Origin: Anisus vortex
Taxonomy: Eukaryota > Mollusca > Gastropoda > Planorbidae
Assembly (NCBI GenBank): GCA_949126835.1
Contig: OX421494.1
Coordinates: 57,044,358-57,108,357, forward strand
Direction of reading: 5' to 3'
Length of the DNA stretch: 64,000 nucleotides
The notes beneath the pieces were generated by a model, which was not told where the DNA came from, made no database searches, and was given only the letters and a program-made list of their open reading frames with translations. A program made the translations under genes and the position numbers. Every line of letters begins with the position of its first letter. The stretch's first letter is position 1. Below, piece by piece: positions 15,108 through 51,722 of the stretch.

Positions 15108-18100
15108 ATGGGTTGGCCGGACACCTACACCAGCGGTCTGCTGGCCACTTTGTGTGGCTTGTTGGCCATGGTGAATGCAGGAGTTATGATGGTGAGTTTA
15201 CACTAAGATTGGGTTCTGTATATAAAGGACTATTATTTCAAGCTTTTTTGCGTAATTTATCTTTGTTTATTTAGTTATTATACACGGCAGTAAATTCTTT
15301 TAATGTACAGATAGGCCTACACACAGAAACTTAGATATAAGCTTACAATTCAACTAATCGAATATATTAGGCCTACTGGACATAGGAATAAAAACACATT
15401 AATGTCTTTTATCATAAGCAAAGGCTGGAATCTGGCAATGATCAAACAGCCTATGGCTAGTTATGTTCTTTAATTAACCCTTTCACTGTCAACTGGGGTG
15501 TAATCCACCCGGAGAGGGACTTCTATTGCTCATAACTTTTTTCTCGTTTTGATAATTGTCCTCATATTTTACCTAATCCTCAATGTCCTTGACATGAACA
15601 CGTGAGACTATGAAAATATTAAAAGTATGATTAAGAAATTATTTTTTTTTTGGGGGGGGGGGGGGGGCAGCTAAACTTTTTTTTCTACATTCCCCGGCAA
15701 CTGGGCGTAACACACCCGTATATAATTTAAGAGGGGAACAACCCTCTGAACTAACTAGTTGACATTTTTTATTGAGTTGTTTGATGTTCTGCTGATTATT
15801 TGAGAGTGTACAAGTCCACAAAATACATTTTAAAGGTCAACAATAAAAAAATTAGTCGTCTGACTGAGCATATATGGCCTGCCAACTATAAATAACATAA
15901 GTTTAGTTGATATAATATATTTTAAAACAGAACTATCTAGTGTATACATAAAAATAAGGTCTTTGCATCTCGCTTGCACAACTTTTACATACAATAACTG
16001 ATCTTTATTTGCAAATGTGTTTGCTACACTTGCAGTATTGAGATTTTTTCATTCATGACATTTCATTGAGTGCAGTGTAGTAAGTGTACACCTAGTTTGC
16101 TTTTTCGCTGTATTACTTGCCATATCGGTTATCATTGCCATTTTTTGTCGCAGTTGATATGGTTTAATTAGTTTGTTGAAGTTTTGTTTTAACGCCAATT
16201 AAAACACTGCCAATGTTCTGCCTCACAATATCTTGGTGTGCTGGGGTAGATGACCGGGTAATACAATTTTACATCATATAGGCCTAATCCTATAATGTTG
16301 AAAAGAAAATGGGTATAATTAAGTCAAATTTATATAAAAGTAAGCCTATAATGAAATATAATATAGGCCCTATATAATAGGCTATTGAATATATTTATGG
16401 TACGCCTAGATATCCTTTCTCATTTTACTATAGTAGCGTCTCTAGCGACCGCTGCCTTGCGTCGAAAAAAAATGGCAGAATCGAGCTTCACTTTTAGTGA
16501 CTGCGCATATAGGCATTGCGCATTCTGTTCTATAGCTATTCTGTGGGAGTTGCTTGCAGTATGTTGAAACTATATGCACCAACCTATAAAACCAACCAAC
16601 TGCTCATTCACATCAATGTTCTCCCAGTAACATAATACTTTACTAAACTACTTAGGAATGCTTCTCAGATATCTCTTACGTGAAAAAGATGTCACATGTC
16701 TGAGAGATTGACAGTCAACAGAAGCTTTTCTTTTCATTTCAATCACATCGATTCTTTGCCAAGAATCTCCTTCTACTTTCTTGCATTCCCTGTTGACGAA
16801 GGCTAGATCTACTGTTGGTAATCATTTGTTCACTATATTAAGAGTTCCTGTGTGATCTGTGCAGTAAATTTGATTCCTATGGGTTTTTTTTAGTATGCAT
16901 CATAGGCAGTGTTTTATTATTCAAAGGTAATTATTAAATTATTATATATGATTTAATCCATTGGTGAAGCAGCATAATAGGAGATTGTGTGACCAGCACA
17001 ATACCCAGGCAATTTACGTCTCCACAATTAATTTCAAGTACCTAGCAGAGTTAAATCTTCTTAGAAACATATTTTTTAGGCCCGGGAAAAAATCATAGCC
17101 TTCGCAAGGATTTAAACCTCGAACCTTCGGTACGCCAGTCCAGCGCGCTGCCACAAGACCACCGTGTGCTAAAATGTACAAAAAATCATTATTGATGGCC
17201 ATTTATTGTTGAATAAGACTATAGGTGTAACTCGCCCAGTTGCCAGGAATCATTATAAATATTTTCCCTTACATCATGAGTGTACGGGTGTGTTACACCC
17301 AGTTGCCGGGGACAGGTTATGATCAGGAAATATGTTGCCGTAGAAAGGGTTAAGATGGTTTTGTCCCGAAGGACACGTAAATATAATTTCTTGCCGATTA
17401 GCATTTGACTACAGAATGTGTGGCTCTCGAGCTAATCAATAAAATTTAAATTTGAAACCCTCCTCAAATTGCAAGTAGATGCGTACATAGATTAGATATA
17501 TATATTACATATGCGGAACATCTGTTACATACTAGATCTATAAGATTTAAACCTAAAATAAACAAAACAAATAAACTATTTTAACTTAGTTGGCCTTTAA
17601 ATTTAAGCATACCATGCTAATAACGCCAAGTGTTAAGAGGGATTAAAGATAATTATAGTTAGAATCTACTAGAAAGTCTCTTTAAAAACCCGGACGAGCC
17701 AAAGCTCTTTACTCCGGGGCGTAACGCATTAGAAATGAGTATAACTCTGCCCGGGTTCCAGCCACCCCACGGCACGCCGAGGCGTGGCGTGCCATGTAAA
17801 AGGGAAGGCTTCCGCAGGCCAGAGACCGTTCGCTGCGGTTCCCCTAAGGATCATTATCGTGGTGGCGCGCCCGTATATCTGCATTGTCACCCGGTAGCAC
17901 AAATCCTATACTATAGGAACAGGCATCCAGGCACCGGGTGGGTCGTGAGACATGTTGCAGCATCCATTGCTTCCTCCCCACCGAGACCCCGTGGCCTCTC
18001 GGCAGTGCAATGAATCTCGGACATGCTGCGGGGGCTGTCCCCCATGCGTTAGCCCGCCGGTGTTTTCTAAAAGAAAAGTACTGGCGGTTTAGATAGTCGT

Positions 18101-21100
18101 GGATGTGCGCGTCCGCCAGAACACCTAAGTTAGCACTTCCAATGATATAGGGAGAGATAAGCAAAGACATCATTGGTCATTTGTAGAGATTTATTTTATG
18201 ATGATAGGTGGATAGGCCCTATATTAATATTATGTACTTTAAAAAAAATGTATTCATATAAACCGCATTATATTAATGTATTCTGTCTATTCCCACGTAG
18301 GACTGCAATCAATCAGCAAACGACAACAGAACTATTTACGATTTTTCCTTGAAGAATGTCCACAAGAATATGACAATCGACCTTAGTGATTACAAAGGAA
18401 AGGTAACTGATGATTTACTCATGAAGTTTTATATTTTTTTACTGCTGAACTAATAACTAATAATGATGACATTTGTATAGCTCTGCCAACAAACATAATG
18501 CAAGCTCAGAGCGCAGTTAACATACAACTAAGAACACGGATACATACTATTGGCTAAGAGATAAAAAACTAAATGATGATTCAAAACTTTATAAACATAG
18601 AACAAATCAAACAACTAAAACAAAATAACCGACCTAACATATTGATAAGATAGTAGGGCTCTAAAGCATGTTAACTAAGATAAATATTGCGCTCTAAAGT
18701 TTTGTTGCTGCTCTGATCAAAGCTGCCATCAGTATTATACACTGATCTATATATCAGTGGTATTATGCTAAGAAGGGAAAGTCCATAAAAGACGTCATCC
18801 GAGCTTATGGACAAAGAAATTATTACTGCCACAACTTTTAAACATCCTACTTTTGTCACATATTGTTGCCTCAAAAGGCAAAGGAGGTCTATTTTAAACA
18901 GCTTCTAGAACACATGATTCAAAGCCGTGTATTATTTAGATTTAGAAGTTGCTATAAATATCATATTAAATTTGAAACATGTATAAGGAAATGTTTTCGT
19001 AAAAAATATTTTTAATATATAGCCTACGTTTATATCATTAGCACATTTGCTGCCAACCTATTATCTTTTAATTGTAAGTGTATACATTTTTTTTGTTCAT
19101 CTTAAATTGACTCCTTTTTTATGTATTCCGTCCACAGGTTGTCCTTATTGTCAATGTGGCAACTTACTGAGGTCTGACTCCCCATTACTTTGGAATGAAT
19201 GCACTAAGTTCCCAGTATGGTAGTCAGGGCTTTGTAATTCTCGGCTTCCCTTGCAACCAGTTTCTCAAGGTACCTTACTCTTTAGCATAATTAACTCAAA
19301 TACTTTCCCTTTCGAACCCGTTTATTTAAGCTTAACTTTGCATGTTGGGATATATAAAAAGGATCGCCTTGCAACATGAACAGTTGCCATGGAGATATTC
19401 TGAAATTAAAGTCGACCAAAAGGGTTGAAATATGTAATATGCAGAAACAAATAGATTTCCCTCTCTATTCTGAGAACTATGAATCTATTTGTCTTCTTAG
19501 TTTTAAAATAACTTTAGTTTTAAATAATTGTAAATCAATATTGTTGTCTATACTGGCATAGATCCGAATTACTTACTGGTAATAGCTTAACCTTTTCGGT
19601 ATTTAGATTTATCGTTCATTGTTCTTCTGTCAATCAGACATTATCAGATACTATTACCTTTGACTGCGCTTCCTCCATAATAGCCTAGTGCGGACAAAAC
19701 TAGCTTATAAATAGCCTAGTGCGGACAAAACTAGCTTATAAATAGCCTAGTGCGGACAAAACTAGCTTATAAATAGCCTAGTGCGGACAAAACTAGCTTA
19801 TAAATAGCCTAGTGCGGACAAAACTAGCTTATAAATAGCCTAGAACATTAGCATGGGAGCCTGTAACACTTTGCTTTATTCCATATAATAATGCCCTACA
19901 CATTTGGCTTAATGTAAAAGTTTTGGGTTAGTTTAGTGCTATTGTTCCCGTGTGGTATTCGGGCAGGGAATGGGTTGCCTGATCAAACCAGGAAAACCAG
20001 TAACTTAACATCATTTAAAACACTCAATAGAAATGCAGGACTAGACACAAACCACGGATGTGCGTAGGACGCAATAATATTTTTTTTATAGAAGGAGCGT
20101 TTGTAATGTATAAGATAAGCTATAATGTTCATATAAAATACTAAAAAGTTAGTTTGAAAAATAAAGATTTAGGAATAAATTTTACGTCACTGGTTAAGCC
20201 AGCAAGAGTTAATTATACCAAAGACTATAAAAAGATGGACGCTTGCGCTATTTATCGAGCTGAATAGTTCGTTTGCGCATGCGCGGCCTCCTATTTGCAC
20301 TCAAGTCTTCCGTTTTAAATACAATTTAAAAAACGCCCCTGCGTAGAGTATAACAAGAAAATTTAAGAATTGCACAATTGCTAGCAGGCATTATAGTTTT
20401 TAATACACATTGGTAGATTTCAGGAGTGTAGCGTTTGTTAATATAGACATTACCTTGCAAGTTTACAATTCTTCCTATTTATTTTTTTTCCAGCAAGAAC
20501 CTGGAGCCAATGGGACAGAGATCCTGAACGGGGTGAAGTATGTTCGCCCTGGTGGCGGTTTCGTCCCCAACTTTCAACTTTTTGAGAAAATTGATGTCAA
20601 CGGGGCACAGGAGCACCCACTCTACACTTACTTAAAGGTTAGAATTAAGAGTTGCAGCCTTTTATTAGCACTTCACTCATCTGAAAGATAATTATACGTG
20701 TATTATGTATTATTAAATCCGATGACAGTGGAACTAACGTTTTTGAAACTTGAGACCCCTTTACATTCAAGACTAATATTGTTTGGTGCAAGAGTATTCA
20801 AACTAAGCGTTGTGAAGCAGACGATAAAATGTTGACCTTTTCTGTGTTCCAAAACTCCTTTGTTTTCTTCTACAGTCCGTGCTAGACTCTATCTCTTGCA
20901 TAAAGTTGACCGTCTATAGACTCTTATCTCGTGTATAAAGTTGACCGTCTATAGACACTTATCTCTTGTATAAAGTTGACCGTCTATAGACACTTATCTC
21001 TTGTATAAAGTTGACCGTCTATAGACACTTATCTCTTGTATAAAGTTGACCGTCTATAGACACTTATCTCTTGTATAAAGTTGACCGTCTATAAACACTT

Positions 21101-24100
21101 ATCTCTTGTATAAAGTTGACCGTCTATAGACACTTATCTCTTGTATAAAGTTGACCGTCTATAGACACTTATCTCTTGTATAAAGTTGACCGTCTATAGA
21201 CACTTATCTCTTGTATAAAGTTGACCGTCTATAGACACTTATCTCTTGTATAAAGTTGACCGTCTATAGACACTTATCTCTTGTATAAAGTTGACCGTCT
21301 ATAGACACTTATCTCTTGTATAAAGTTGACCGTCTATAGACACTTATCTCTTGTATAAAGTTGACCGTCTATAGACTCTTATCTCTTGTATAAAGTTGAC
21401 CGACTATATCAGACTTTGGGCCCATCAAAATCTTGACCTGCATGGTGATACTATAAAACAGTACCTGGTTTCTCGCTTGTCTATGGACAGGACTGTGACA
21501 GTAGTGATTTTGTAACTTTGTGTAAATGACTGTGTGATCAATTTAACACAAACTGAAACTTAGTGACACATAATGGACTGTATTATTGTAATTTGTTAAC
21601 CAAACTGAGTGTTGTTATTATATTGACTGACTGGACTCTGTGAAATGTGTTCATGAATGTCTTGTTTGAGTGTAGGAATAGGCTAATGATTGAATGTCTG
21701 TAAGAAGGAGCTATAAAAGGATTATAGAATGAGAATACACGCTTTTTTAGTTCTTTTTTTTACAATGACATTGTTGGAAGATGTGCTCTGGTTGAGTCAA
21801 AGGACCATAAAAAATATATAGATATAATATTTTGTCTTAATTTTACGTCGCTTTGGTCTAGAAAAATCAACATAACTAAGCTTACATTATAAGCTTACTA
21901 AAATTCAAAATTTAGAATTACATAGGCCTAGACATATTTTTTGAAGTTTTAGGCATTCGTTTTTTATCAGCTCTAGATCTAATTGCGGATAAAAGTTTAA
22001 AAAAAAACTGCCCCAAGCTCAAGCTTTTAGCTCTGCTTCAAAAACCTGTTAGAAACATTACTGCACGAGACATTATATCAAGGGTGTGGGGTGTAACGGG
22101 AGGGGAAACTTGAAGCAGACGTGTAGTTTTGCACGTTGAGTGACGGGCCTTTAAGAAATTATATGATTTAGAGGAAATAGAAATCAATATTATAAATAAC
22201 AAATACATGTTTGTCCAGAGAGGCGGGAAATCTAAATACACCATTCCTGCTTGACTGCCAATTATTAATTGACTATTCCGTGCGCACTGCCCTCTATAAT
22301 ATGGATTTTCTGTCACGTGTCTATCACTTTGAAGTCTGCAATCAGCTATTGTTTGGACTTAAAATTAGGCTTTAGAAAAACATCTGCTATACGCTAGGTA
22401 ACTGATGATTCTTAATCTACCCACATATAGCCTAGGCTAGTGACAAAGGTCTTACACAAACCATAGACTATAGGCCCTAATATATTATAGTCTATGCACA
22501 AACAAATAAAAAAAAATACATATTTTTATAACGCTATTCATAACAAAGTCTTCGAATGCGCTTTACATTTACCATAATATGTTATTTAAAAAAAACACAC
22601 GAATAAGTGTGTTTATAATTTGTTTTAAAAATGTCAATACTGTCAGCTTGTTGAAATGTATTCGGAAGTTCATTCCACAACAGAAGTGGTACACATAATG
22701 AAAAAAAGGAAAAAGAGGGGAACATGTTAAACTGCCCAATGGAAATTGGGATAACCCTTGCGCCCTGACCTCCACTTCAGGAATCAACTAGGCGGCCCGC
22801 CATTTACCGTCTTAGTGACACCAGCTACGTAGTACATGTCACTGACATTAATATGTGTGTGAAGTTTCTGTTGGTGTTAAATTAAGATAAATAAAGTTCC
22901 ATCCAGTTTGTTTCATATCAAGGAATTAGGGCATATCGTTGTTTTTTTTATAAATCTTAGTAAAAAGTAGGCTAAAGCTGTATGAGAGAAAAGCTAATTA
23001 TTCAATAGTTTTATACGTTTTACAGACGTTCCTTCTAGATAGAATATTTTTACGTCCACTAGACCCAAAACTCATGCAGGGCGGCAGGGATCGGTCGGCG
23101 GCTGGGATAGAACCCGCGACGTGTTGGTTGATAGTCGGTGAACTAACCACTGTGTGACAGTAATAGTAACTTGTGTAACTGTGAGTGTGTAAGGGACGGA
23201 ACACTCATATTATAAACTGACTGAGACTTAGTGACACACATTAGACTGTATTATTTAATGTGTTGACGGGACTTAGTGACCGGATATCTCTGTGTTATTG
23301 TTTATGCGACTGGCTGGACAGAGTGAGTTTTATACATGGATATCTTTTGGAGGTGTATGAATAGGGAGTGATTGCCTGTGATGTGCTAATGCAATGTACT
23401 AAATTGTACTATAAAAGGATTGTAGAATGAGAATAACGATTAGTTGTCAAACAAAACTATTGGTTAAAGATGTACATTCACACACAGGACCAACATAATC
23501 GTTTTAAAAAAGCATCTCCTCACAAGACACTGGGACAGGAAATAGAACAAAATTTATATATTTGTATTGTTTCACTGTTTGTACTACACAGTGTTCATTT
23601 ATTTTTGTGTTGTTTGCTGATAGTCCCTAATATTCAATTGATGATAGCGAAAACACAATAAATTGTCTAGTAATAGACCCAAAATAGAATGATGTTGGGA
23701 TACAATAAAAATGAACATTCTAATTAGGGAGTACAATAACGTTTGGTACAGCTGTATGATCCGGGCATAGAATGGGTTGCCCGAACACTTTATCTAAACC
23801 AATAACTTAACAGCATTTTAAAATACTAATCAAAATGCAAGACTAGACTTAGCACACGAATAAGCGTATGACGCAATAATCTCCTGTATAGAAGGAGCGT
23901 CTGTACCTGACACTCTAGCATGGAATGGGTTGCCTGAAAAAAAAACAGGAAAACCAGTAACGTAACATCATTTTAAACACTAATAAAAATGCAGGAGTAA
24001 ACTTGGAAAACGGATGAGCGTAGGACGCACTAATCGTCTTATAGAAGGAGCGTTTGTAAGATATAAGATAAGATCATACACTGTGTGACTTTTTTGCATT

Positions 24101-24394
24101 TTTGTACCATCTTTAATAATAACTTTACAATTGTTCTAGCGGGTTTCTTTCTTTTTGCGTCACTAGAGTGTTTGCCCTCCGACAGGAGTGACCTTTAACC
24201 CAGCCACGCTGTTCTATTCACCAATCAAAGCCAGCGACGTGGCGTGGAACTGGGAAGTTTTCCTGATTGGCTACAACGGGAAGGTCGTCAAGCGCACCAT
24301 CCCTCAAACTGATCCTGACAAACTGGCAGCCGACATAGAGATTGAACTGGCGCGCGCCAGAAGCGCTATCACCAGCCCACCAATTATTGGTTAA
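15108..24394 (+). CDS. Secreted selenocysteine glutathione peroxidase, paralog A
   Basis: Five coding exons: 15108-15191, 18301-18402, 19138-19269, 20494-20637 and 24167-24394, all with GT/AG introns in phase 0, give 229 aa. Such enzymes reduce hydrogen peroxide and lipid peroxides with glutathione or another thiol; this one should act outside the cell. Residues 1-28 form a hydrophobic signal peptide ([16 protein letters not shown]). Exon 3 reads NVATY-UGA-GLT, placing selenocysteine at residue 73. The remaining catalytic residues are Gln103 (FPCNQF), Trp181 and Asn182 (VAWNWE). [13 protein letters not shown] is the loop of the tetrameric GPx1/2/3 class, absent from GPx4. Possible N-glycosylation sites include NRT, NMT and NGT. 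A SECIS candidate lies 1.27 kb past the stop. Length and motifs match extracellular GPx3. It is first of three tandem copies. Read with UGA as stop it would look like a pseudogene. Confidence 0.93.
16966..17168 (-). mobile_element. tRNA-derived SINE, family C, in paralog A intron 1
   Basis: The reverse strand begins GCACACGGTGGTCTTGTGGC, then AGCGCGCTGGACTGGCGTAC and a B-box region GAGGTTTAAATCC. It is the clearest tRNA-like head of family C. Its 3' part shares CACACAATC with the other copies. Confidence 0.8.
17689..18075. repeat. GC-rich dispersed repeat D, copy 1 (18S-like)
   Basis: A GC-rich island in the AT-rich intron 1 of paralog A. From about 17783 to 18020 it matches copy 2 at 43148-43432 closely. 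Shared words include CTGCGGTTCCCCTAAGGATC, CACCCGGTAGCACAAATCCT and CCTCCCCACCGAGACCC. The segment 17794-17857 resembles the 3' end of 18S rRNA, including AAGGATCATTA. Strand is not certain because no promoter or tail is evident; the rRNA-like part reads on the plus strand. Confidence 0.7.
19168..19170 (+). other. UGA selenocysteine codon, paralog A
   Basis: In-frame TGA at residue 73 between TAC and GGT, in the motif NVATY-U-GLT. The frame continues for 156 codons with correct splicing into conserved GPx sequence, so this is recoding and not termination. Confidence 0.93.
19677..19845. repeat. 31-bp tandem repeat, five copies
   Basis: Five near-identical copies of a 31-bp unit containing AGCCTAGTGCGGACAAAACT, in intron 3 of paralog A. 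Confidence 0.93.
19943..20127 (+). mobile_element. LINE 3' end, family A, 5'-truncated
   Basis: It begins with the end of a LINE ORF (frame reading roughly [20 protein letters not shown]) and runs through a short 3'UTR to the tail hairpin region and GTATAAGATAAG. In intron 3 of paralog A, same orientation as the gene. Confidence 0.8.
20219..20340. mobile_element. Half of a GGACCGCTTG-type MITE
   Basis: It starts ACCAAAGACTATAAAAAGAT followed by GGACGCTTGCGC, which matches the left end of the copies at 46752 and 33363. The right end is missing. Confidence 0.55.
20884..21405. repeat. 35-bp minisatellite
   Basis: About 15 copies of a 35-bp unit containing AAAGTTGACCGTCTATAGAC. It begins about 250 bp into intron 4 of paralog A. 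Copies differ by few substitutions. Confidence 0.94.
21484..21760 (+). mobile_element. LTR-like dispersed repeat, copy 1
   Basis: It shares several blocks with 23148-23470: CTGTGACAGTA, ACTTAGTGACACA, GACTGTATTATT and, near the end, CTATAAAAGGATTATAGAAT. The TATAAAA before the end, the TGTGACA start and the lack of an ORF fit a solo LTR, but the exact 3' edge and target duplication were not found. Confidence 0.45.
23018..23153 (-). mobile_element. tRNA-derived SINE, family B, in paralog A intron 4
   Basis: The reverse strand has AGTTCACCGAC and the B box GGGTTCTATCCC. It ends with the tail ACGTAAAAATATTCTATCTA then GAAGGAACGTCTGTAAAA. The head is truncated compared with the copy at 28613. 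Confidence 0.8.
23148..23470 (+). mobile_element. LTR-like dispersed repeat, copy 2
   Basis: It is the partner of 21484-21760, with the same order of blocks and the same CTATAAAAGGATTGTAGAAT near its end. It lies directly against the family B SINE. Confidence 0.45.
23756..24076 (+). mobile_element. Two LINE 3' ends of family A in tandem
   Basis: Copy one spans about 23756-23910 and copy two about 23911-24076. Both run from the CATAGAATGGGTTGCC or CATGGAATGGGTTGCC ORF-end region to the GAAGGAGCGT tail. The second ends only 90 bp before exon 5 of paralog A. Confidence 0.75.
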
Positions 24395-25659: not shown

Positions 25660-25725
25660 AAGATGTTATGACGTGCCTTCTATAAACAGTTTTCATTGGC
25701 TGCTGGATCGCACCGACACATTATT
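25660..25725 (+). promoter_or_regulatory. SECIS element of paralog A
   Basis: The 5' core ATGA is at 25668-25671 and the 3' core CGAC at 25714-25717, allowing the tandem G-A/A-G quartet. The helix between has GTGC opposite GCAC and TCTA opposite TGGA. Twelve bases after ATGA come the unpaired AAA, followed by a mini-helix CAG/CTG, as in type II SECIS elements. All three paralogs share this layout at the same relative place. Confidence 0.8.
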
Positions 25726-25796
25726 GACGTCATCAAGACTTGTGCATTCGTCTGGTGATTGTCGTAATGGCATTTCTTTTTTTTTTTTATTTGAAG

Positions 25797-25802
25797 AATA
25801 AA
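25797..25802 (+). terminator. Polyadenylation signal, paralog A
   Basis: AATAAA 80 bp after the SECIS core. It is the first such signal downstream of the SECIS. Confidence 0.55.
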
Positions 25803-37600: not shown

Positions 37601-40600
37601 GAGGGAGAGATAGATAAGGGAGTCAGTGAAAGACAGTGAGAGAGAAAGAGGGAGAGATAGATATGGGAGTCAGTGAAAGACATTGAGAGAGAAAGAGGGA
37701 GAGATAGATATGGGAGTCAGTGAAAGACAGTGAGAGAGAAAGAGAGAGAGAGAGATATGGGAGTCAGTGAAAGACAGTGAGAGAGAAAGAGAGAGAGATA
37801 GATATGGGAGTCAATGAAAGACAGTGAGAGAGAAAGAGGGAGAGATAGATATGGGAGTCAGTGAAAGACAGTGAGAGAGAAAAAGAGAGAGATAGATATG
37901 GGAGTCAATGAAAGACAGTGAGAGAGAAAGAGAGAGAGATAGATATGGGAGTCAGTGAAAGACAGTGAGAGAGAAAGAGAGAGAGATAGATATGGGAGTC
38001 AGTGAAAGACAGTGAGAGAGAAAGAGAGAGAGAGATAGATATGGGAGTCAGTGAAAGACAGTGAGAGAGAAAGAGAGAGAGATAGATATGGGAGTCAGTG
38101 AAAGACAGTGAGAGAGAAAGAGAGAGAGATAGATATGGGAGTCAGTGAAAGACAGTGAGAGAGAAAGAGAGAGAGAGATAGATATGGGAGTCAGTGAAAG
38201 ACAGTGAGAGAGAAAGAGAGAGAGATAGATATGGGAGTCAGTGAAAGACAGTGAGAGAGAAAGAGAGAGAGATAGATATGGGAGTCAATGAAAGACAGTG
38301 AGAGAGAAAGAGGGAGAGATAGATATGGGAGTCAATGAAAGACAGTGAGAGAGAAAGAGAGAGATATGGGAGTCAGTGAAAGACAGTGAGAGAGAAAGAG
38401 AGAGAGATATATATGGGAGTCAATGAAAGACAGTGAGAGAGAAAGAGGGAGAGATAGATATGGGAGTCAATGAAAGACAGTGAGAGAGAAAGAGAGAGAT
38501 ATGGGAGTCAGTGAAAGACAGTGAGAGAGAAAGAGAGAGAGATAGATATGGGAGTCAATGAAAGACAGTGAGAGAGAAAGAGGGAGAGATAGATATGGGA
38601 GTCAGTGAAAGACAGTGAGAGAGAAAGAGAGAGAGATAGATATGGGAGTCAATGAAAGACAGTGAGAGAGAAAGAGAGAGATATGGGAGTCAGTGAAAGA
38701 CAGTGAGAGAGAAAGAGAGAGAGATAGATATGGGAGTCAATGAAAGACGGTGAGAGAGAAAGAGGGAGAGATAGATATGGGAGTCAGTGAAAGACAGTGA
38801 GAGAGAAAGAGAGAGAGATAGATATGGGAGTCAGTGAAAGACAGTGAGAGAGAAAGAGGGAGAGATAGATATGGGAGTCAGTGAAAGACAGTGAGAGAGA
38901 AAGAGGGAGAGATAGATATGGGAGTCAGTGAAAGACAGTGAGAGAGAAAGAGGGAGAGATAGATAAGGGAGTCAGTGAAAGACAGTGAGAGAGAAAGAGG
39001 GAGAGATAGATATGGGAGTCAGTGAAAGACATTGAGAGAGAAAGAGGGAGAGATAGATATGGGAGTCAGTGAAAGACAGTGAGAGAGAAAGAGAGAGAGA
39101 GAGATATGGGAGTCAGTGAAAGACAGTGAGAGAGAAAGAGAGAGAGATAGATATGGGAGTCAATGAAAGACAGTGAGAGAGAAAGAGAGAGATATGGGAG
39201 TCAGTGAAAGACAGTGAGAGAGAAAGAGAGAGAGATAGATATGGGAGTCAGTGAAAGACAGTGAGAGAGAAAGAGAAAGAGATAGATATGGGAGTCAGTG
39301 AAAGACAGTGAGAGAGAAAGAGGGAGAGATAGATATGGGAGTCAGTGAAAGAGATAGTTATAGAAATCACAACTTGGCGCACAGAGAAAAACCATTCAAG
39401 ATCGTTCGTAAAAAAACAGTTTATCTTCTTGTTATGTCTCGGGTCTTCTGTCTTTTGTCTGGGGTTTGGTTCAGTATTAGGTAATACTTTCAAGCCACTC
39501 AATGAATGTTCAATGAAGAATGTATTACTTGAACTTACTTACAATAATTACATTAACGTGCACAGGTTTATAATGAATTGCTTCTTTAACACTCTACAAC
39601 ACAACAAAATCTCCGTGTGCTTTATTAAACTTTTGTGCAGGATTTCAGATTACGAAGGGAAATACGTGTAGAGATTACAAAAACACATTTTAGTATACAC
39701 AAATAATATTTAAAGCCATAATAAATAACTGCCAATTAATTATATCTACAATTATAAATACACAATATGAAAACGATTTAAATATGACATATATAAAAAA
39801 TATTACATATTGATCAGACTGCTATAGGCCTACTTTATACATACAATGGATTGCATATGGAATGACAGAGAGACAAACTAATGGCACGCTTCCCTAGCTT
39901 CTCCCCGTGTTTTCAATAATCATAATGTTTGAATTGTTTATTATGATCTTTAAACCACAACAAATTCTGATTTTAACGAAACAACAGGTAGCCATTAATC
40001 CAGCATACATCCAGTGATTCCATTGTTACGGTGTTTTAAATATGTAGGCTACAACAAATTAACAGGTTTTTTTATAGCCTACTACTTTACTCAAGGCATA
40101 AATGCAGGTTACCGGCCTTTGAACTACAGCCATATCTTCATTGTTAATTTGTAAAAAAAAAAAAAACAACTGTTAAACTTATCTCTCAGTGTTTAGTTAA
40201 ATTATGGAGACACGAACTGTGATAAAGTCTATTTGTGTTTGACAGCGACTCTAGCTGACCTTTGAACTAAACAGCTGGCTGCTGTTGTTTATAACCTCTA
40301 ACACTAAATGGCTTGCCTATACTTTCGCCCTTTCTTGTTATCTGATCAATTATTGGTGTCTGTTATATTTATGAGTGATACAGCACGTAGGCCTGAAAGA
40401 TATTTACTGGACTAAAACGTATTTAGAGAGTATCTCTTAGTCACACAAAAAATAAATAAAGACATTTTCCTTTTATAGAACCGTGACAAAAAAAAACATG
40501 AATATTACCAGTAGGCCTATTAGGGAAGAGTAACGATGAAATAGAGAGAGAGAGGGGGTGAGAGAAAGAGAAATGGGAAAGGCGAGAAAGAAAGAGAAAG

Positions 40601-41175
40601 AGAAAAGAAAAAGAGATAAAGAGAATAAAAGAGAAACAGAGAGAGAGAGAGAGATTAACGTTTCAGTGTGGTGAAACAGAAAAAAGGGAAAGAAAAACTT
40701 CGTATACAATATGAAAGTATTTACACCAACACTTTATATATTGGTCTAAATATTAGATTATATTCTTTAATATGGAACAGATATATTATTTATATTTAAC
40801 TACAATTAAAAACTAAAAGACCTTATCATTTGAATTTAGAACATTGTCAATAAAGAATTGTTTTAAAACAAACATTTCCTTATCAATTTTTATTTTTTAA
40901 ATTATAAACGCCATTTTGTTTACATGAATTTTATTCTTTTACTTCAGAGTAACTGCCCCCCGACGGCAACTTCCTTCAATCCCACAAGGCTGTTCTACAC
41001 ACCAATCAAAGCCAGCGACGTGGCCTGGAACTGGGAGGTCTTTTTGGTGGGCTACGATGGGAAAGTCATCAAGCGGGCCATCCCGCAGCTGGACCCTTTG
41101 AAACTGGCAGACGACATAGAGATCGAGCTGGCGCGAGCCAAAAGTGCCGGCCTTGACCTGGTCGTCAGTGGTTAG
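31663..41175 (+). CDS. Secreted selenocysteine glutathione peroxidase, paralog B
   Basis: Exons 31663-31746, 33140-33241, 34065-34196, 34891-35034 and 40948-41175, all phase 0, give 229 aa with exon lengths identical to paralog A. Signal peptide is residues 1-28 ([16 protein letters not shown]). Selenocysteine is residue 73 (TGA at 34095), Gln103 is in FPCNQF, Trp181-Asn182 in VAWNWE, and the tetramer loop [11 protein letters not shown] is intact. Possible glycosylation sites include NET and NGT. It is closest to paralog A; exon 3 differs at only three residues (H for P, L for F, and the linked bases), so these two are the younger duplicates. Intron 4 is 5.9 kb, mostly a 47-bp minisatellite. 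A SECIS candidate lies 0.93 kb past the stop. Expected role is extracellular peroxide removal; redundancy or tissue specificity relative to A cannot be read from sequence. Confidence 0.93.
31850..31965. repeat. TCTATCTATCCATTCATTTA-type repeat
   Basis: About five copies of a 20-bp unit built from TCTA and ATTC, running into CTGT repeats, in intron 1 of paralog B. Confidence 0.85.
31978..32177. mobile_element. Short hAT-like MITE
   Basis: The left end is CAGAGTTGGCAACCTG and the right end AGGTTGCCGACCCCTG, inverted to each other. Flanking 8-bp sequences CTCTAAAC and CAGTAAAC match at six of eight positions. The subterminal GTGCCAAGTCTGGCACGC motif recurs near 53200. In intron 1 of paralog B. 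Confidence 0.7.
32888..33092 (+). mobile_element. LINE 3' end, family A, best-preserved copy
   Basis: It runs from GCATATAAGTACTCTTTCTT through CGGGCATGGAATGGGTTGCC, then GGATGAGCGTAGGACGCAAT and the hairpin tail. It ends in a (GATAA)n microsatellite. The frame at the start reads [20 protein letters not shown], the usual LINE ORF ending. It sits 50 bp before exon 2 of paralog B. Confidence 0.85.
33363..33661. mobile_element. GGACCGCTTG-type MITE, complete
   Basis: Inverted ends: left CATAGACTATAATATACATG then GACCGCTTGCT; right AGCAAGCGGTCCATCCTATT then ATAGTCTATG. About 300 bp, no ORF, in intron 2 of paralog B. It serves as reference for the family. Confidence 0.85.
34095..34097 (+). other. 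UGA selenocysteine codon, paralog B
   Basis: In-frame TGA at residue 73 in the same NVATY-U-GLT setting as paralog A. Confidence 0.93.
35045..39355. repeat. 47-bp GA-rich minisatellite with higher-order structure
   Basis: About 90 copies of a roughly 47-bp unit containing ATATGGGAGTCAGTGAAAGA and a variable GAGAGA block. Rare variants recur at fixed distances: GATAAGGGAGTC at 36352, 37613 and 38962, and ACATTGAGAG at 36420, 37681 and 39030. So blocks of about 1.26 and 1.35 kb were duplicated as wholes. It begins about 10 bp after the exon 4 donor of paralog B and fills most of intron 4. Confidence 0.96.
39356..40947. other. Rest of paralog B intron 4
   Basis: AT-rich intron. A GA-rich, lower-order tract lies at 40540-40690. 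No exon or element recognised. Confidence 0.55.
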
Positions 41176-42091: not shown

Positions 42092-42157
42092 AAAATGTTA
42101 TGACGTGCTATCCATAAACAGTCTTGATTGGCTGCTGGATTGCACCGACACATTATT
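42092..42157 (+). promoter_or_regulatory. SECIS element of paralog B
   Basis: 5' core ATGA at 42100-42103, then 12 bases, AAA, mini-helix CAG/CTG, and 3' core CGAC at 42146-42149. The helix pairs GTGC with GCAC and CCA with TGG. It is nearly identical to the paralog A element, with a few loop changes. Confidence 0.82.
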
Positions 42158-42311
42158 GACGTCATCAAGACTTGTGCATTCGTCTGGTGATTGACGTAAT
42201 GACATTTTGTTTTGTTTTGTTTTTCCAAACCAGAAAATGTAAAAACTGTACACAGTGAACAAAACTATCAACGAAACAAAACATATTTTTAAACCTTTAA
42301 CAAATTGGTAA

Positions 42312-42886: not shown

Positions 42887-42934
<48 letters not shown>

Positions 42935-44394: not shown

Positions 44395-44403
44395 TATATA
44401 AGG
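44395..44403 (+). promoter_or_regulatory. TATA box of paralog C
   Basis: TATATAAGG lies 41 bp before the ATG at 44444, which implies a very short 5'UTR. Confidence 0.6.
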
Positions 44404-44443
44404 CGGTTGGACAACGCTAAGCAAATTTTAAACCGCCTGCAAC

Positions 44444-44790
44444 ATGTGGACGCTATCGTCTGCTGTGTTTGGCGGTCTGCTGACCACTTTTTGCGGTCTC
44501 ATAGCCTTGACTGGATCGAACAGTATTTTGGTAAGGCATTTTTTTATTAATGTCATTTGACTATTTTAAAACTATTTAGTTTATTTAAACATTTAGATTA
44601 GTCAATATTTATTTTTCACTCCAACGTTTTCGTTACTTTTAAAAATGTTTTTAACCTGATGAATATTTTTAGAACTGCAACCAGCCCAAGAGTGACAACA
44701 GAACAATTTATGATTTCTCTATGAGAGATATTGAGGAAGACAAACTGATTAATCTGAATGATTATCGAGGTCAGGTAAGAAGGCCACTAA

Positions 44791-44852
<62 letters not shown>

Positions 44853-47800
44853 TAATCCATCTCTTTATCTTTTTTCTATCGATCTATTTATCTGTCTATT
44901 TATATATCAAACGTTGTATCTATCTATATGTCTGTCTATATGTCTGTCTATCTATGTATATCTAACTGTCTATCTATCTATATTTCTATCTGTATGTCTG
45001 TCTATATATGTATATCTAACTGTCTATCTATCTATATTTCTATCTGTATGACTGTCTATCTATCTATATTTCTATCTGTATGACTGTCTATATATGTATA
45101 TCTAACTGTCTATCTATCTATATTTCTATCTGTATGTCTGTCTATCTATGTATATCTAACTGTCTATCTATCTATATTTCTATCTGTATGACTGTCTATC
45201 TATCTATATTTCTATCTGTATGACTGTCTATCTATCTATATTTCTATCTGTATGACTGTCTATCTATCTATATTTCTATCTGTATGACTGTCTATCTATG
45301 TATATCTAACTGTCTATCTATCTATATTTCTATCTGTATGACTGTCTATCTATCATCAATCTATTTATTGTATCTATCATATATATCTTTATCATTTAGC
45401 TATCTATCTATCTATTGGTCTATACATCTGTCTATCTATCTATCTATTTATCTATGTATCCATCCATTTACCCATATATCTATATATCCATTCTACTTGC
45501 TGTCTTTGATCAGGTTGTCTTGATCGTCAATGTAGCAACCTACTGAGTATTTACCCACCAGTATTTTGGTTTGAATGCACTCAACTCAAGATACGCTGGT
45601 CGAGGTTTTACAATATTGGCTTTCCCGTGTAACATATTTAGCTTGGTGAGTACACTTATCATTTCCTGTGTAACATATTTAGCTTGGTGAGTACACTTAT
45701 CATTTCCCGTGTAACATATTTAGCTTGGTGAGTACACTTATCATTTCCTGTGTAACATATTTAGCTTGGTGAGTACACTTATCATTCCCCGTGTAACATA
45801 TTTAGCTTAATGAGTACACTTATCATTTCCCGTGTAACATATTTAACATGGTGAGTACACTTATCATTTCCCGTATAACATATTTAGCTTGGTGAGTACA
45901 CTTATCATTCCCCGTGTAACATATTTAGCTTAATGAGTACACTTATCATTTCCCGTGTAACATATTTAACATGGTGAGTACACTTATCATTTCCCGTGTA
46001 ACATAATTAACTGGGTGTGCACAAGTACACAAGTCAGTACAATTTCCAGATTTCCTGAGTAGTGTCTATAGCTAGTTTAGACCAGCCATTATTGATTACC
46101 TGATATATATGTGCATATAAAAAAGGTTAGAATAACGCATTAACAATCTTTTGAGAAACTAGCTTTAACAACCATAACGTTTAATTTAAGTTGTCTATGT
46201 TAGTGCCGGACAGGAAACGCAAATATGTAGGCCTCAATATAGTTGACCTACATTTCATGTAAACTGAAACTAAGGAAAAATTTAACAAAATTGGTTTCAC
46301 TAAGTTGGCATTTGCTTGCGCTAGAATCTACTTGTATTTGTGCATTCTCAAATTCTTGTTAATATATTAAACATTTCTGGAATGGGGTTAGGCTCGTTCG
46401 GCTTCTTGACCTATTCGACCGTTGCCTCGAGCCTACTCCCATATCATGTTACTTTGGGTCCTCTAGTATGACTTATCGTCCCACGTGACTTGCTTCTTCT
46501 TCCGCAGCAAGAGCCAGGGGAGAACGCCACGGAGATACTCAACGGCATCAAGTATGTGCGCCCTGGGGGCGGCTTCACGCCCAATTTTAAACTGTTCCAG
46601 AAAGTTCTTGTCAATGGGATGAACGAGCATCCGTTGTATTCCTATCTGAAGGTAATCTAACACATCATTCAATGTGTACATTGTTGTTTTAGAATATTGA
46701 AAGATGTCCTTTACACATTAGGGCGCCAATCGGGGGCATAACGTGTAAGTCAGACCAAAGACTATAATAAGATGGACCGCTTGCACTAATTTTAGAGCTA
46801 ATAGGTTATTTTTTTCCCGTGTGCATCCAATAAGGCTTTCTTAAATTACTTCTACGCTACTACGATTGTTTTAAAGGTTTCGCGGTATATAACTTTCGAT
46901 TTTAGTTTTAATTTTTCATTGAGAAAATCATAGCGATTCACTAAACCGGAAGTGTAGAGGACTTAGTGCGTTCGGAAATTCCGAAACTAGTGTAAGTGTT
47001 TCAAGTTATTATGGTCTTTGGTCACAAGTCAGACGTACAAAATCGCCGAAGAGCTAATCATATTGTCAGCATTGTTGTATTATCTTGTATGTTACAGACG
47101 CTCCTTTAACACGGATGATTATTGCCAATAGGCCTATACACTCAAGTATTATCTTGTATGTTACAGACGCTCCTTTTACACGGATGATTATTGCCAAAAG
47201 GCCTATACACTCAAGTATTATCTTGTATGTTACAGAAGCTCCTTTTACACGGATGATTATTGCCAAAAGGCCTATACACTCAAGTATTATCTTGTATGTT
47301 ACAGACGCTCCTTTTACACGGATGATTATTGCCAATAGGCCTATACACTCAAGTATTATCTTGTATGTTACAGACGCTCCTTTTACAAGGATGATTATTG
47401 CCAATAGGCCTATAAACTCAAGTATTATCTTGTATGTTACAAACGCTCCTTTTACACCTTTGATTATTGCCAATAGGCCTATACACTCAAGTATTATCGT
47501 GTATGTTACAGACGCTCCTTTTACACGGATAATTATTGCCAATAGGCCTATACACTCAAGTATTATCTTGTATGTTACAGACGCTCCTTTTACACGGATG
47601 ATTATTGCCAATAGGCCTATACACTCAAGTATTATCTTGTATGTTACAGACGCTCCTTTTACATGGATGATTATTGCCAATAGGCCTATACACTCAAGTA
47701 TTATCTTGTATGTTACAGACGCTCCTTTTACACGGATGATTATTGCCAATAGGCCTAACACTCTTAGTATTATCTTGTATGTTACAGACGCTCCTTTTAC

Positions 47801-50107
47801 ACGGATGATTATTGCCAATAGGCCTATACACTCAAGTATTATCTTGTATGTTTCAGACGCTCCTTTTACACGGATGATTATTGCCAATAGTCCTATACAC
47901 TCAAGTATTATCTTGTATGTTACAGACGCTCCTTTTACACGGATGATTATTGCCAATAGGCCTAATATACACTCAAGTATTATCTTGTATGTTTCAGACG
48001 CTCCTTTTACACGGATGATTATTGCTAATAGGCCTATACACTCAAGTATTATCTTGTATGATACAGACGCTCCTTTTACACGGATGATTATTGCCATTAG
48101 GCCTATACACTCAAGTATTATCTTGTATGTTACAGACGCTCCTTTTACACGGATGATTATTGCCAATAGCCCTATACACTCAAGTATTATCTTGTATGTT
48201 ACAGACGCTCCTTTTACACGGATGATTATTGCCAATAGGCCTATTCATTCAAGTATTATCTTGCATGTTACAGACGCTCCTTTTACACGGATGATTATTG
48301 CCATTAGGCCTATACACTCAAGTATTATCTTGTATGTTACAGACGCTCCTTTTACACGGATGATTATTGCCAATAGGCCTATACACTCAAGTATTATCTT
48401 GTATGTTACAGACGATCCTTTTACACGGTTGATTATTGCTATTAGGCCTATACACTCAATTGTGGAGTAAAAAATGATGCTTTTTTTTTCTTGTTGTTCT
48501 TTGTAATCCGATTTCGTAGACTTTTTAAAAACTTTGGGCCCAATTAAATTAACACCTATTGTGACAAGGAAGAGATGACATTACTGGACTTGTTGAACTT
48601 ATTCAGGAGGAAACGGGTAACCCACTTGTCTTTAGCCTAGCATTAATGGGAACAGAGCCGCATTATTATGCAAACCCACATCTCCTTCCTCACCAAAATC
48701 TGCTTCTTCCATCTGCGTCGTATTGCCGCCATCCGTCGTTATCTCACCAAGGAAGCTTGTGTTAAGCTCATCATCTCTCTCCTATTTTCCCGCTTGGACT
48801 ATTGTAATTCGCTTTTGGCTGGTCTCCCGGCCTCCTCCCTTCAAGGACTCCAACGTATCCAGAACTGCGCAGCCCGACTAGTTCTCAAGAAGAAGAAGTC
48901 AAATGATATCAATCCTCTGCTCCGATATCTGCACTGGCTACCCATCAACAACCGGATCTCATATAAGCTGGCTTCCCTCTGTTATAGGTGCCTGAATAAC
49001 TGCGCCCCGGATTATCTTCGCTCTTGTATGGAGCTCTACACCCAGTCCCGCCCACTTCGTTCGGCATCTGACGCGCTTACTCTGCGGATCCCTCGTGTGA
49101 GGCTAGTGTCCGCTGGCGAACGTTCATTTTCCTACGCAGGACCGTCCGCTTGGAATCACCTCCCACTACAGCTTCGCCAGAGCCCTAGCTATGACACCTT
49201 CAGGAGCCGGCTGAAGACTCACCTATTTCGTCAGCAGAATTAGCGTATTACTATATATTTCGTTGTCTGTCTGTATTCTGTAACTGTCGTCTGCGCATAG
49301 AACTGTCACCAACGGGATATGCGCTATATAAGCACCGTTATTATTTATTTATTATTTATTTATATTATTGGCAAAGCATTTTGTTATCTGTAGTATAAAC
49401 ATGGTGTAGTTTGTTGTGGTTGTTTTGAATAGCGATAAAGAATCTATTATTTATTATCGACCAGTGAAGTGGAATCTTATTATTGTACATTACTTTCTAG
49501 CATTAAATTCTTCTTTAAACTTTCATCGACAATTGGTAATACTTAAGTCTTTGATTTTGACTACTCCCAGCTTTGAACAAAGTTTAATAAGAGTTCAAAT
49601 TACTTTTTATTAGCTTTTTCGTAGAAACAGAAATTCTTAATAGGCAGCATAATATTGGTCCTTCCCAAGGAACCACCCATAAAGGGTAAACTTCTTCCAT
49701 TACCGCCTTCAGGAGAGGCGTTCGATGGGAGTTTGATGGTAACACAACAGTTGAAACATGAAGCGTTTAAAAATAGGGCTTCTATATTATATTATAATAT
49801 TTAAGTCTACATTATAGATCTATATTCTAATTATTATTACTATTTAAATAAATAGTTAGATGTAGGTTTTCTTTCGTAAAGACTTCACTGTACACTTTGA
49901 ATCTTGCAGAGTAACTGCCCGCCGACGTCTGCTACGTTCAACCAATCCACGCTCTTCTATACCCCCATTTCAGCCAATGACGTGGCGTGGAACTTTGAGA
50001 AGTTTATCGTGGGTAAAGATGGCCGTGTCCTTCACAGAGCGCACCCATCCACGGCGCCCGACGCCTTGGCGGCCTTCATCGAAGCAGAACTGTCCCGCGC
50101 ATCGTAA
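44444..50107 (+). CDS. Divergent selenocysteine glutathione peroxidase, paralog C
   Basis: Exons 44444-44530, 44673-44774, 45514-45645, 46508-46651 and 49910-50107, all phase 0, give 220 aa. The N-terminus is a hydrophobic signal-like segment ([16 protein letters not shown]). Selenocysteine is residue 74 (TGA at 45544), Trp182-Asn183 are kept in VAWNFE, and the tetramer loop [11 protein letters not shown] is present. Two active-site changes stand out: the catalytic Gln is Ile104 (FPCNIF), and Gly after Sec is Val. A possible glycosylation site NAT matches the NGT of A and B. The C-terminus is about ten residues shorter. Despite these changes all splice sites, the frame and a SECIS candidate remain, so the gene looks maintained. 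Activity may be weakened or redirected; this is inference from the catalytic residue. It is the oldest or fastest-evolving member. Confidence 0.9.
44790..45490. repeat. CTAT tetranucleotide-rich tract
   Basis: About 700 bp of (CTAT)n and derived longer units (for example a block with ATTTCTATCTGTATGACTGT repeated several times). It fills intron 2 of paralog C almost from donor to acceptor. Confidence 0.92.
45544..45546 (+). other. UGA selenocysteine codon, paralog C
   Basis: In-frame TGA at residue 74, NVATY-U-VFT. The following codon is GTA (Val) instead of GGT (Gly). Confidence 0.9.
45623..46012. repeat. 41-bp array made of the exon 3 end and its splice donor
   Basis: The last about 20 bases of exon 3 (TGTAACATATTTAGCTTG) and the first about 21 of intron 3 (GTGAGTACACTTATCATTTC) are repeated in tandem with a 41-bp period, eight extra units after the genuine one. 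Donor-like junctions recur at 45682, 45723, 45764, 45846, 45887 and 45969. The units at 45805 and 45928 have AATGAGT and so lack the GT. Units 5-6 and 8-9 are alike, so a 123-bp block was also duplicated. Confidence 0.93.
46752..47023. mobile_element. GGACCGCTTG-type MITE in paralog C intron 4
   Basis: Left end GACCAAAGACTATAATAAGA and right end TTATTATGGTCTTTGGTC are inverted copies. It contains TTTCATTGAGAAAATCATAG as in the other copies. About 270 bp, no ORF. Confidence 0.85.
47070..48462. repeat. 69-bp minisatellite derived from a retrotransposon tail
   Basis: About 20 copies of a 69-bp unit. It contains GTTACAGACGCTCCTT and GATTATTGCC, which is the reverse complement of the family A LINE tail (GAAGGAGCGTCTGTAATGTA), followed by AATAGGCCTATACACTCAAG. 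Because 69 is a multiple of 3, both strands show long open frames of a 23-residue repeat; these are not genes. In intron 4 of paralog C. Confidence 0.92.
48650..49370 (+). pseudogene. 5'-truncated LINE with reverse-transcriptase C-terminus
   Basis: The open frame 48668-49243 (191 aa) encodes the C-terminal part of a non-LTR reverse transcriptase: [47 protein letters not shown], and [20 protein letters not shown]. This motif set is usual for the CR1/L2/Rex-like part of the jockey superfamily. The palm with the catalytic aspartates is missing, so it is a dead 5'-truncated copy. The 3' end is GCGCTATATAAGCACCGTTA plus an ATTT repeat. A reverse copy lies at 55172-55690. It is in intron 4 of paralog C, in gene orientation. 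Confidence 0.87.
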
Positions 50108-50337
50108 AATCTGGGGGTGGGGTTGAACATATATGCTGATTTAGTAAATACCTTGATCAATGTTAATATAGGTCGATAGGTTTAATAATAATATGCATGT
50201 ATCATTCTTATGTTATTGTTGATGGTTATGTACAAATGTTTAATCATAAATGTTTATAGGCTAGAGAGGTGGAGAGGCAATAGTAGGACTTATGAAGTAC
50301 GACTAATTATAAAAAGACTTTTAAAAAAAATATATAT

Positions 50338-51557: not shown

Positions 51558-51622
51558 AGGAAAATATATGACGTCATGTCCATCAACAGCGCCGCTGCTG
51601 GACTGCACTGACATGTATATGA
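51558..51622 (+). promoter_or_regulatory. SECIS element of paralog C
   Basis: 5' core ATGA at 51568-51571 and 3' core TGAC at 51609-51612. GTCC pairs with GGAC, with internal mismatches below; unpaired CAAC is followed by a perfect mini-helix CAGC/GCTG. Outer helix ATAT opposite TATAT. The sequence differs considerably from A and B but the pairing scheme is the same, which supports a functional fold. Confidence 0.8.
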
Positions 51623-51716
51623 TCCACGTTACGGACGACGAGTGCATTCGTCACGTGACTTGGCATAACGATTCTTCCGGAAGTGCAGCAAATGTAACAA
51701 TCTTTTATGTTTATAA

Positions 51717-51722
51717 AATAAA
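51717..51722 (+). terminator. Polyadenylation signal, paralog C
   Basis: First AATAAA after the SECIS, about 105 bp past it. Confidence 0.5.

What the first reader, a model, noticed from the sequence alone, without database searches (positions are those of the whole stretch)
15108..51722. Tandem cluster of three secreted selenocysteine GPx genes
Three GPx genes lie head to tail over 36 kb. All have five exons, all introns are phase 0, and in each the UGA falls at the same place in exon 3. Exon lengths of A and B are identical (84, 102, 132, 144, 228 nt). A local set of secreted selenoprotein peroxidases would be notable in a snail, where extracellular peroxide handling matters in haemolymph defence. 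UGA-as-stop annotation would hide all three.
Basis: partly seen in the sequence, partly recalled or inferred. Interest (0 to 1): 0.8.

Follow-up and report, generated by a model that had tools for sequence, protein, structure and literature searches.

The report
Snail selenium-peroxidase trio, one altered
A snail genome carries three neighbouring genes for selenium-using, probably secreted peroxidases; two look standard, but the third, like relatives in other snails, lacks a residue long regarded as part of the enzyme's catalytic machinery while keeping the selenium codon and an RNA signal for it.

Summary
Three head-to-tail + strand GPX genes (A, B, C) each have five exons, phase-0 introns and an in-frame UGA at codon 11 of exon 3. 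I add what the finding did not give: each gene has a SECIS-like element 0.9-1.5 kb after its stop. A model built from A and B alone finds C's at E=2e-5; the next hit in the window is E=0.57 (E-values rough). Coding sequence past the UGA is under purifying selection (A-B dN/dS 0.19-0.24). The selenoprotein reading is well supported; tandem selenoprotein clusters are already known in invertebrates (PMC3473315).

The unexpected part is gene C: the catalytic Gln (FPCNQF) is Ile, and Sec is followed by Val, not Gly. Orthologues in Biomphalaria and Bulinus also have Ile. Among 191 retrieved tetramer-type GPX proteins, 53 of 186 readable lack Gln (two doubtful), whereas Trp and Asn are present in 256 of 256 retrieved proteins. 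One Gln-less Sec-GPX is tabulated for a ciliate (PMC7409322), so this is a new variant, not a new kind. A and B exon 3 also look homogenised, probably by gene conversion. Secretion, expression and activity are untested.

The parts
15108..24394 (+). Gene A coding span; exons 15108-15191, 18301-18402, 19138-19269, 20494-20637, 24167-24394; 229 codons including Sec, plus stop
   Evidence: GT-AG, phase 0, Pfam GSHPx 1.5e-38
19168..19170 (+). Gene A in-frame UGA (Sec codon)
25661..25726 (+). Gene A SECIS-like element, 1.27 kb after the stop
   Evidence: training sequence of model R1
31663..41175 (+). Gene B coding span; exons 31663-31746, 33140-33241, 34065-34196, 34891-35034, 40948-41175; 229 codons including Sec, plus stop
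   Evidence: Pfam GSHPx 5.2e-36
34095..34097 (+). Gene B in-frame UGA (Sec codon)
42093..42158 (+). Gene B SECIS-like element, 0.92 kb after the stop
   Evidence: training sequence of model R1
44444..50107 (+). Gene C coding span; exons 44444-44530, 44673-44774, 45514-45645, 46508-46651, 49910-50107; 220 codons including Sec, plus stop; catalytic Gln replaced by Ile
   Evidence: Pfam GSHPx 1e-36
45544..45546 (+). Gene C in-frame UGA (Sec codon), followed by Val where A and B have Gly
45634..45636 (+). Gene C ATA (Ile) codon at the catalytic Gln position (FPCNIF), codon 41 of exon 3
51562..51621 (+). Gene C SECIS-like element, 1.45 kb after the stop
   Evidence: E=2.1e-5 with a model that did not include it; B block against C flank: local score 49, maximum 30 of 200 shuffles
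19138..19269 (+). A exon 3, 95.5% identical to B exon 3 (34065-34196) against 72-82% in the other four exons: probable gene-conversion tract
45621..46017 (+). 41-nt minisatellite, 9.7 copies, whose unit contains the last 25 nt of C exon 3 and its splice donor
35071..39352 (+). 47-nt purine-rich minisatellite, about 92 copies, starting 37 nt after B exon 4, inside intron 4

Best explanation
A, B and C are tandem-duplicated genes of the animal GPX3/5/6-like group (tetramer-type, probably secreted). The UGA in exon 3 is decoded as selenocysteine with the help of a SECIS element in each 3' UTR. A and B are standard Sec-Gln-Trp-Asn peroxidases. C keeps Sec, Trp and Asn but has lost Gln: the selenium itself does the peroxide chemistry, and loss of Gln probably makes the enzyme slower or differently tuned (or shifts its substrate or reductant) and not dead. 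Shown: gene structure, UGA position, SECIS-like elements, constraint after the UGA in A and B, Gln-to-Ile in C and in its orthologues. Inferred: transcription, Sec insertion, secretion, and the catalytic effect of Gln loss.
For: Gene structure and Pfam matches; nearest solved structure of C by sequence is human GPX3 2r37, E=1.4e-48. SECIS: the A and B 3' flanks share a block 85% identical over 187 nt; model R1 from A+B alone hits C's 3' UTR at E=2.1e-5, next best 0.57; B block against C flank scores 49, maximum of 200 dinucleotide shuffles 30. Downstream constraint: A-B post-UGA dN/dS 0.187 (NG86) or 0.239 (YN00) over 156 codons; differences at codon positions 1,2,3 are 5,5,18 in exon 4 and 17,14,32 in exon 5. 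C groups with B. glabrata P0005 and Bulinus P0006, support 100/98, all with Ile; B groups with B. glabrata P0001/P0037, 97/87; A and B. glabrata P0015 lie in the same A/B clade, 98/88, their own branching unresolved. Gln is replaced in 66 of 251 readable rows, while Trp and Asn are kept in 256 of 256.
Against: No Rfam family reached its threshold in the window, and permissive searches of the three 3' UTRs and of 91 nt around B's element gave no SECIS family. Folding energy is unusual only for B: z = -0.68 (A), -2.61 (B), -0.97 (C). In C's element two pairs of the upper helix are non-standard in the A/B register. A's block against C's flank scores only 33, shuffle maximum 29. dS between C and the others is saturated, so there is no dN/dS for C. 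No transcript, protein or read data were available.
Confidence: 0.77

Rival explanations
1. C is a decaying or catalytically dead paralogue kept for another role (for example a decoy, a subunit in mixed tetramers, or selenium storage).
For: Loss of a tetrad residue and Val after Sec; two non-standard pairs in its SECIS helix.
Against: Open frames, intact splice sites, Sec codon and SECIS-like element all kept; orthologues with the same Ile in Biomphalaria and Bulinus; Trp and Asn kept in all 256 aligned proteins. A dead enzyme has little reason to keep a costly Sec codon (inference).
Confidence: 0.2
2. The UGAs are real stops and the genes are truncated or pseudogenes.
For: UGA is in frame in all three; public models of relatives mostly start after it.
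Against: Purifying selection after the UGA in A-B, SECIS-like elements, same UGA position in three diverged copies.
Confidence: 0.03
3. Gln-to-Ile in C is a sequencing or assembly error linked to the 41-nt minisatellite that begins in exon 3.
For: The codon lies inside the first repeat unit.
Against: Independent records of B. glabrata (P0005), Bulinus (P0006) and Elysia (P0003, P0009, P0010) also read FPxNIF.
Confidence: 0.03
4. The near identity of A and B exon 3 reflects selection on an RNA element around the UGA (a Sec redefinition element), not gene conversion.
For: The excess is centred on the Sec exon and ends within about 20 nt of its borders. B-C synonymous identity is also somewhat higher in exon 3 (14/29) than in exons 2+4 (15/51), though not significantly (p=0.15).
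Against: A-C shows no exon-3 excess (14/29 against 23/54, p=0.65); an RNA element around the Sec codon would be expected in C too.
Confidence: 0.2

Closest known systems
Vertebrate GPX3 (and GPX5/6), extracellular tetrameric glutathione peroxidases
   Same: Best solved-structure match of C (2r37, E=1.4e-48); VRPGGGF loop present; Sec, Trp and Asn present; N-terminal hydrophobic segment and sequons.
   Different: Invertebrate paralogues in tandem; C lacks Gln and has Val after Sec.
Ciliate SteGPx2 of Stentor (pattern SXU/X/W/N in Table 2 of PMC7409322; passages and table seen)
   Same: Predicted Sec-GPX with Gln missing and Trp and Asn kept.
   Different: Ciliate, one predicted sequence of seven listed for that species; here a gene C lineage in snails and many further records with Ile, Val, Leu or Asn. 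The same table gives SteGPx3 and 6 as CXU/X/X/N, with Trp missing too.
Gln-substituted Cys GPX (mammalian GPX8 with Ser, two plant GPX with Glu or Gly, as stated in PMC7409322, passages)
   Same: Tetrad Gln replaced. [quoted passage not shown]
   Different: Those lack Sec; C has a Sec codon.
Tandem selenoprotein clusters of invertebrates (deiodinases in amphioxus, Trichoplax and Lottia; a GPX pair in Nematostella; PMC3473315, passages)
   Same: Clustered selenoprotein copies, some with their own SECIS.
   Different: Here three complete GPX copies, each with a SECIS-like element, in a heterobranch snail; one copy of the Nematostella GPX pair is incomplete and lacks SECIS.
Crayfish CqGPx3a/b (PMC8872551, passages)
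   Same: Two invertebrate Sec-GPX3 described as extracellular, with type 2 SECIS.
   Different: PCNQF motif kept.

Membership tests
Glutathione peroxidase family (Pfam GSHPx) | Whole-domain profile match above the curated cut-off | tested here: met
   131.1, 123 and 125.2 bits for A, B, C against cut-off 27
Canonical Sec-GPX (genes A and B) | Catalytic tetrad Sec-Gln-Trp-Asn | tested here: met
   all four positions present, Sec as UGA codon
Canonical Sec-GPX (gene C) | Catalytic tetrad Sec-Gln-Trp-Asn | tested here: not met
   C has Sec (UGA), Ile, Trp, Asn; so C is in the GPX family but is not filed as a canonical tetrad GPX
Eukaryotic selenoprotein | In-frame UGA at a position where homologues have Sec or Cys | tested here: met
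[quoted passage not shown]
   A+B model finds C; block shared by A, B, C. Met on homology, position and core motif; Rfam did not recognise it and SECISearch was not available
Eukaryotic selenoprotein | Selenium incorporated in the protein | not testable with these tools
   needs mass spectrometry or selenium labelling
Tetrameric GPX1/2/3/5/6 group | Oligomerisation loop, absent from GPX4/7/8 | tested here: met
   VRPGGGF loop in all three, aligned to human GPX3 for C. That this loop marks tetramers is recalled
GPX3-type secreted enzyme | Cleavable signal peptide and extracellular location | tested here: inconclusive
   N-terminal hydrophobic peak 1.89, 1.93, 2.08 against internal maxima 1.67, 1.56, 1.80; 4, 3, 3 sequons; no predictor available

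The most novel reading that the evidence does not exclude
Heterobranch snails (and some other invertebrates) carry selenium peroxidases that have dropped the catalytic Gln, more than once, for Ile, Val, Leu or Asn while keeping Sec, Trp and Asn unchanged. If these are active, Gln is dispensable to a selenium-based (as opposed to sulphur-based) GPX, or the change has created a retuned enzyme; surveys that look for the full tetrad may overlook them.
Probability: 0.45. Interest if true: 0.62.

Novelty: new variant of a known kind. Interest (0 to 1): 0.45.

Why it matters
The Sec-Gln-Trp-Asn tetrad is treated as required for GPX activity: for its six newly surveyed species the metazoan study PMC9925728 scanned candidates for the full tetrad 'required for GPX activity' (passages). 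A natural set of Gln-less Sec enzymes, next to complete paralogues in the same cluster, would let one test directly what Gln contributes when the catalytic atom is selenium. The case also shows how snail selenoproteins are hidden by annotation. It bears on the suggestion in PMC10875847 (passages) that B. glabrata may have lost Sec capacity because no tRNA-Sec was found: B. glabrata records P0005 and P0015 start a little after the Sec codon and P0037 starts at exon 4, as happens with an unrecognised UGA. This is indirect; their DNA was not seen.

Tried and rejected
Rfam searches for SECIS in the whole window, in each 3' UTR and in a 91-nt slice found no SECIS family. My own SECIS pattern scan gave 11 + strand and 4 - strand hits, was not discriminating, and missed A and C. 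A second stem-loop 3' of the SECIS seems shared by the three copies, but its folding was not exceptional (z -1.19, -0.36, -1.71), so I do not claim it. A regex count of the Gln position disagreed with the alignment in 16 rows and was replaced by the alignment count. The 115-row quick tree was followed by a 54-row tree with two support values. Structure prediction was not run: the spliced C protein is not read letter for letter from the window, and the Gln-less full-length database proteins that I looked at carry Trp at the Sec position. The organism was not identified to species.

Rows not counted or doubtful: in the count of named heterobranch records I left out two records with C at the Sec position, Bradybaena P0034 and B. 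glabrata P0242, which keep Gln; P0034 lies outside the clade on the tree, P0242 was not placed. P0007 and P0091 are counted as non-Gln in the 53 and the 66 but are doubtful alignments. The tree (115 rows) left out P0007, P0121, P0128, P0160, all of P0057-P0120 and all but 11 of P0169-P0211; proteins P0212-P0256 came later. The tree used 54 rows chosen by me out of the 256 proteins and 3 window genes. Search lists were capped at 120 rows each.
Full report
WHAT IS THERE. The window holds three glutathione peroxidase genes head to tail on the + strand. A tblastn scan with human GPX3 (recalled sequence) and exon modelling give five exons each, GT-AG borders at all 12 introns, all phase 0, and a UGA at codon 11 of exon 3 at 19168, 34095 and 45544. 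A and B have identical exon lengths; C differs in exon 1 (87 nt) and exon 5 (198 nt). All three match Pfam GSHPx far above the cut-off.

IS THE UGA SELENOCYSTEINE? The finding did not mention SECIS elements, the defining test. Comparing the A and B regions showed, besides the exons and dispersed repeats, a strong 3' block: A 25660-25842 against B 42092-42278, 85% identical over 187 nt. It contains an AUGA...GA core with an AA-bearing apical loop. A covariance model built from A and B alone finds a third copy at 51562-51621 in C's 3' UTR with E=2.1e-5; the next match in 64 kb, both strands, has E=0.57 (calibration was short, so E-values are rough). B's block against C's 2-kb flank scores 49, against a maximum of 30 in 200 dinucleotide shuffles; A's block scores 33 against a maximum of 29. 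The elements lie 1.27, 0.92 and 1.45 kb after the stops, and AATAAA or ATTAAA follows within 200 nt. Against: Rfam reports no SECIS family, folding energy is unusual only for B, and C's upper helix has two non-standard pairs in the A/B register. Coding constraint continues past the UGA: A-B dN/dS is 0.187 (NG86) or 0.239 (YN00) over 156 codons, and third positions carry the most differences; C is too diverged for this measure. I regard Sec decoding as very likely, though no expression data were available.

RELATIVES AND HIDDEN ANNOTATION. Of 13 named records of this heterobranch clade (P0001, P0003, P0005, P0006, P0007, P0009, P0010, P0012, P0015, P0016, P0037, P0122, P0172), 12 lack the Sec codon because the model starts after it or omits that stretch; P0007 counts among the 12, its exon 3 replaced by low-complexity sequence. 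PMC12822975 (passages) reports widespread misannotation of this sort for vertebrate selenoproteins. On a 54-row tree C groups with B. glabrata P0005 and Bulinus P0006 (100/98); B groups with B. glabrata P0001/P0037 (97/87); A and B. glabrata P0015 fall in the same A/B clade (98/88), their own branching unresolved. Counterparts of the three copies therefore exist in Biomphalaria; whether they are tandem there was not tested.

THE UNEXPECTED PART: GENE C LACKS THE CATALYTIC GLN. GPX chemistry is described with a tetrad Sec/Cys-Gln-Trp-Asn (PMC7869902, PMC10779653; passages). A and B have all four. C reads FPCNIF in place of FPCNQF (ATA at 45634-45636), and Val-Phe-Thr in place of Gly-Leu-Thr after Sec. 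Orthologues P0005 and P0006 also have Ile. By alignment over all 256 proteins the position is Gln in 185, another residue in 66 and unreadable in 5; in the 191 proteins with the tetramer loop it is Gln in 133, other in 53 (Ile 21, Asn 16, Val 5, Leu 4, Asp 2, Ser 2, Glu 2, Ala 1) and unreadable in 5. Two of the 53, P0007 (Val) and P0091 (Ala), are doubtful alignments. Trp and Asn are present in 256 of 256. Among the 13 named heterobranch records above, 10 are readable and 8 lack Gln (Ile 5, Leu 2, Asn 1); adding two records with C at the Sec position that I set aside (P0034, P0242; both Gln) gives 8 of 12. The 9 named non-heterobranch gastropod records that I identified (P0121, P0146, P0152, P0153, P0157, P0162, P0178, P0196, P0202) all keep Gln. 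Gln is also missing in two records of the bivalve Potamilus (P0233, P0247) and one of the isopod Idotea (P0046).

SEC AND GLN LOSS TOGETHER. In 43 tetramer-type rows the Sec position reads Trp, which I take to be UGA translated as Trp by the source's gene caller (their DNA was not seen); 17 of these 43 lack Gln. Of 32 rows with C there (Cys, or Sec rewritten as C by the tools), 1 lacks Gln. With the Gln column masked, the least number of Gln/non-Gln changes is 11 on the 115-row quick tree and 6 on the 54-row tree; the order of the deep snail branches is unresolved, so I do not state how many losses and regains occurred. The pattern suggests that Gln is evolutionarily labile where the catalytic atom is selenium, while Trp and Asn are not.

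HOW IT PROBABLY WORKS. Shown: architecture, SECIS-like elements, constraint past the UGA in A and B, and Gln loss shared by C and its orthologues. Inferred: A and B act as ordinary peroxide-reducing Sec enzymes. In C the selenol, being more acidic and nucleophilic than a thiol (established chemistry, recalled), reacts with peroxide using Trp and Asn alone, with altered rate or specificity. The rival that C is catalytically dead remains open (0.2).

EXON 3 HOMOGENISATION. A and B exon 3 are 95.5% identical, the other four exons 72-82%. Among codons for the same amino acid, 38 of 42 are identical in exon 3 and 92 of 139 elsewhere (Fisher p=0.0016); a scan-permutation test gives p=0.006. The matching stretch extends 7 and 15 nt into the introns. 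The control comparison A-C shows no exon-3 excess (14/29 against 23/54 in exons 2 and 4, p=0.65); B-C is somewhat higher in exon 3 (14/29 against 15/51) but not significantly (p=0.15). This favours gene conversion between A and B over a conserved RNA element, without proving it. C, with Ile, has not taken part in this exchange.

KNOWN OR NEW. Clusters of selenoprotein genes, including a GPX pair, are in print for invertebrates (PMC3473315, passages). A Gln-less Sec-GPX with Trp and Asn kept is tabulated once, for a ciliate (PMC7409322 Table 2); the same paper states that the tetrad is conserved in all characterised GPX except GPX8 and two plant enzymes. Searches for the motif strings FPCNIF, FPCNNF, FPCNLF, FPSNIF and FPCNVF (one paper, on meat proteins, seen as listing only), for snail or mollusc selenoproteins and GPX, for tetrad variants and for GPX clusters showed, in the listings and the passages that I read, no report of Gln-less GPX in molluscs. 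The library holds open-licence papers only, and most listed papers were seen as listings.

ORGANISM. The nearest named proteins are planorbid (Biomphalaria, Bulinus), and C is closer to B. glabrata than to Bulinus, so a planorbid-like freshwater snail is likely. Species was not identified, and the host genome could not be queried.

Noticed in passing
window 45621-46017: A 41-nt minisatellite whose unit is the last 25 nt of C exon 3 plus its splice donor, repeated about 10 times; of 7 intact GTGAGT donors only the first keeps the frame without a stop. A possible source of mis-splicing or length polymorphism.
   Followed up: partly
window 35071-39352: 4.3-kb purine-rich 47-nt minisatellite (about 92 copies) starting 37 nt inside B intron 4; GC skew 0.69 in 36001-40000.
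   Followed up: no
window 47077-48459: 69-nt minisatellite, 20 copies, in C intron 4, open in one frame for 470 codons.
   Followed up: no
window 59500-60582: Reverse-transcriptase fragment (RVT_1 E=8.6e-7, just under the curated cut-off); a further possible retroelement piece (DUF6451, below cut-off) at 30509-30973 on the - strand.
   Followed up: partly
window 56277-56690: hAT transposase C-terminal dimerisation domain (E=2e-9, above cut-off).
   Followed up: no
window 5068-5358, 5881-6153: Probable coiled-coil exons on the + strand upstream of the GPX cluster; no Pfam family above its cut-off.
   Followed up: no
window 25720-25775, 42147-42205, 51618-51680: A second, partly conserved stem-loop just 3' of each SECIS, with GTGCATTCGTC in all three; folding not exceptional.
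   Followed up: partly
database records P0005, P0015, P0037 (Biomphalaria glabrata): Counterparts of C, A and B whose models all begin after the Sec codon: indirect evidence that B. glabrata also uses Sec, against the suggestion in PMC10875847 that it may not.
   Followed up: partly
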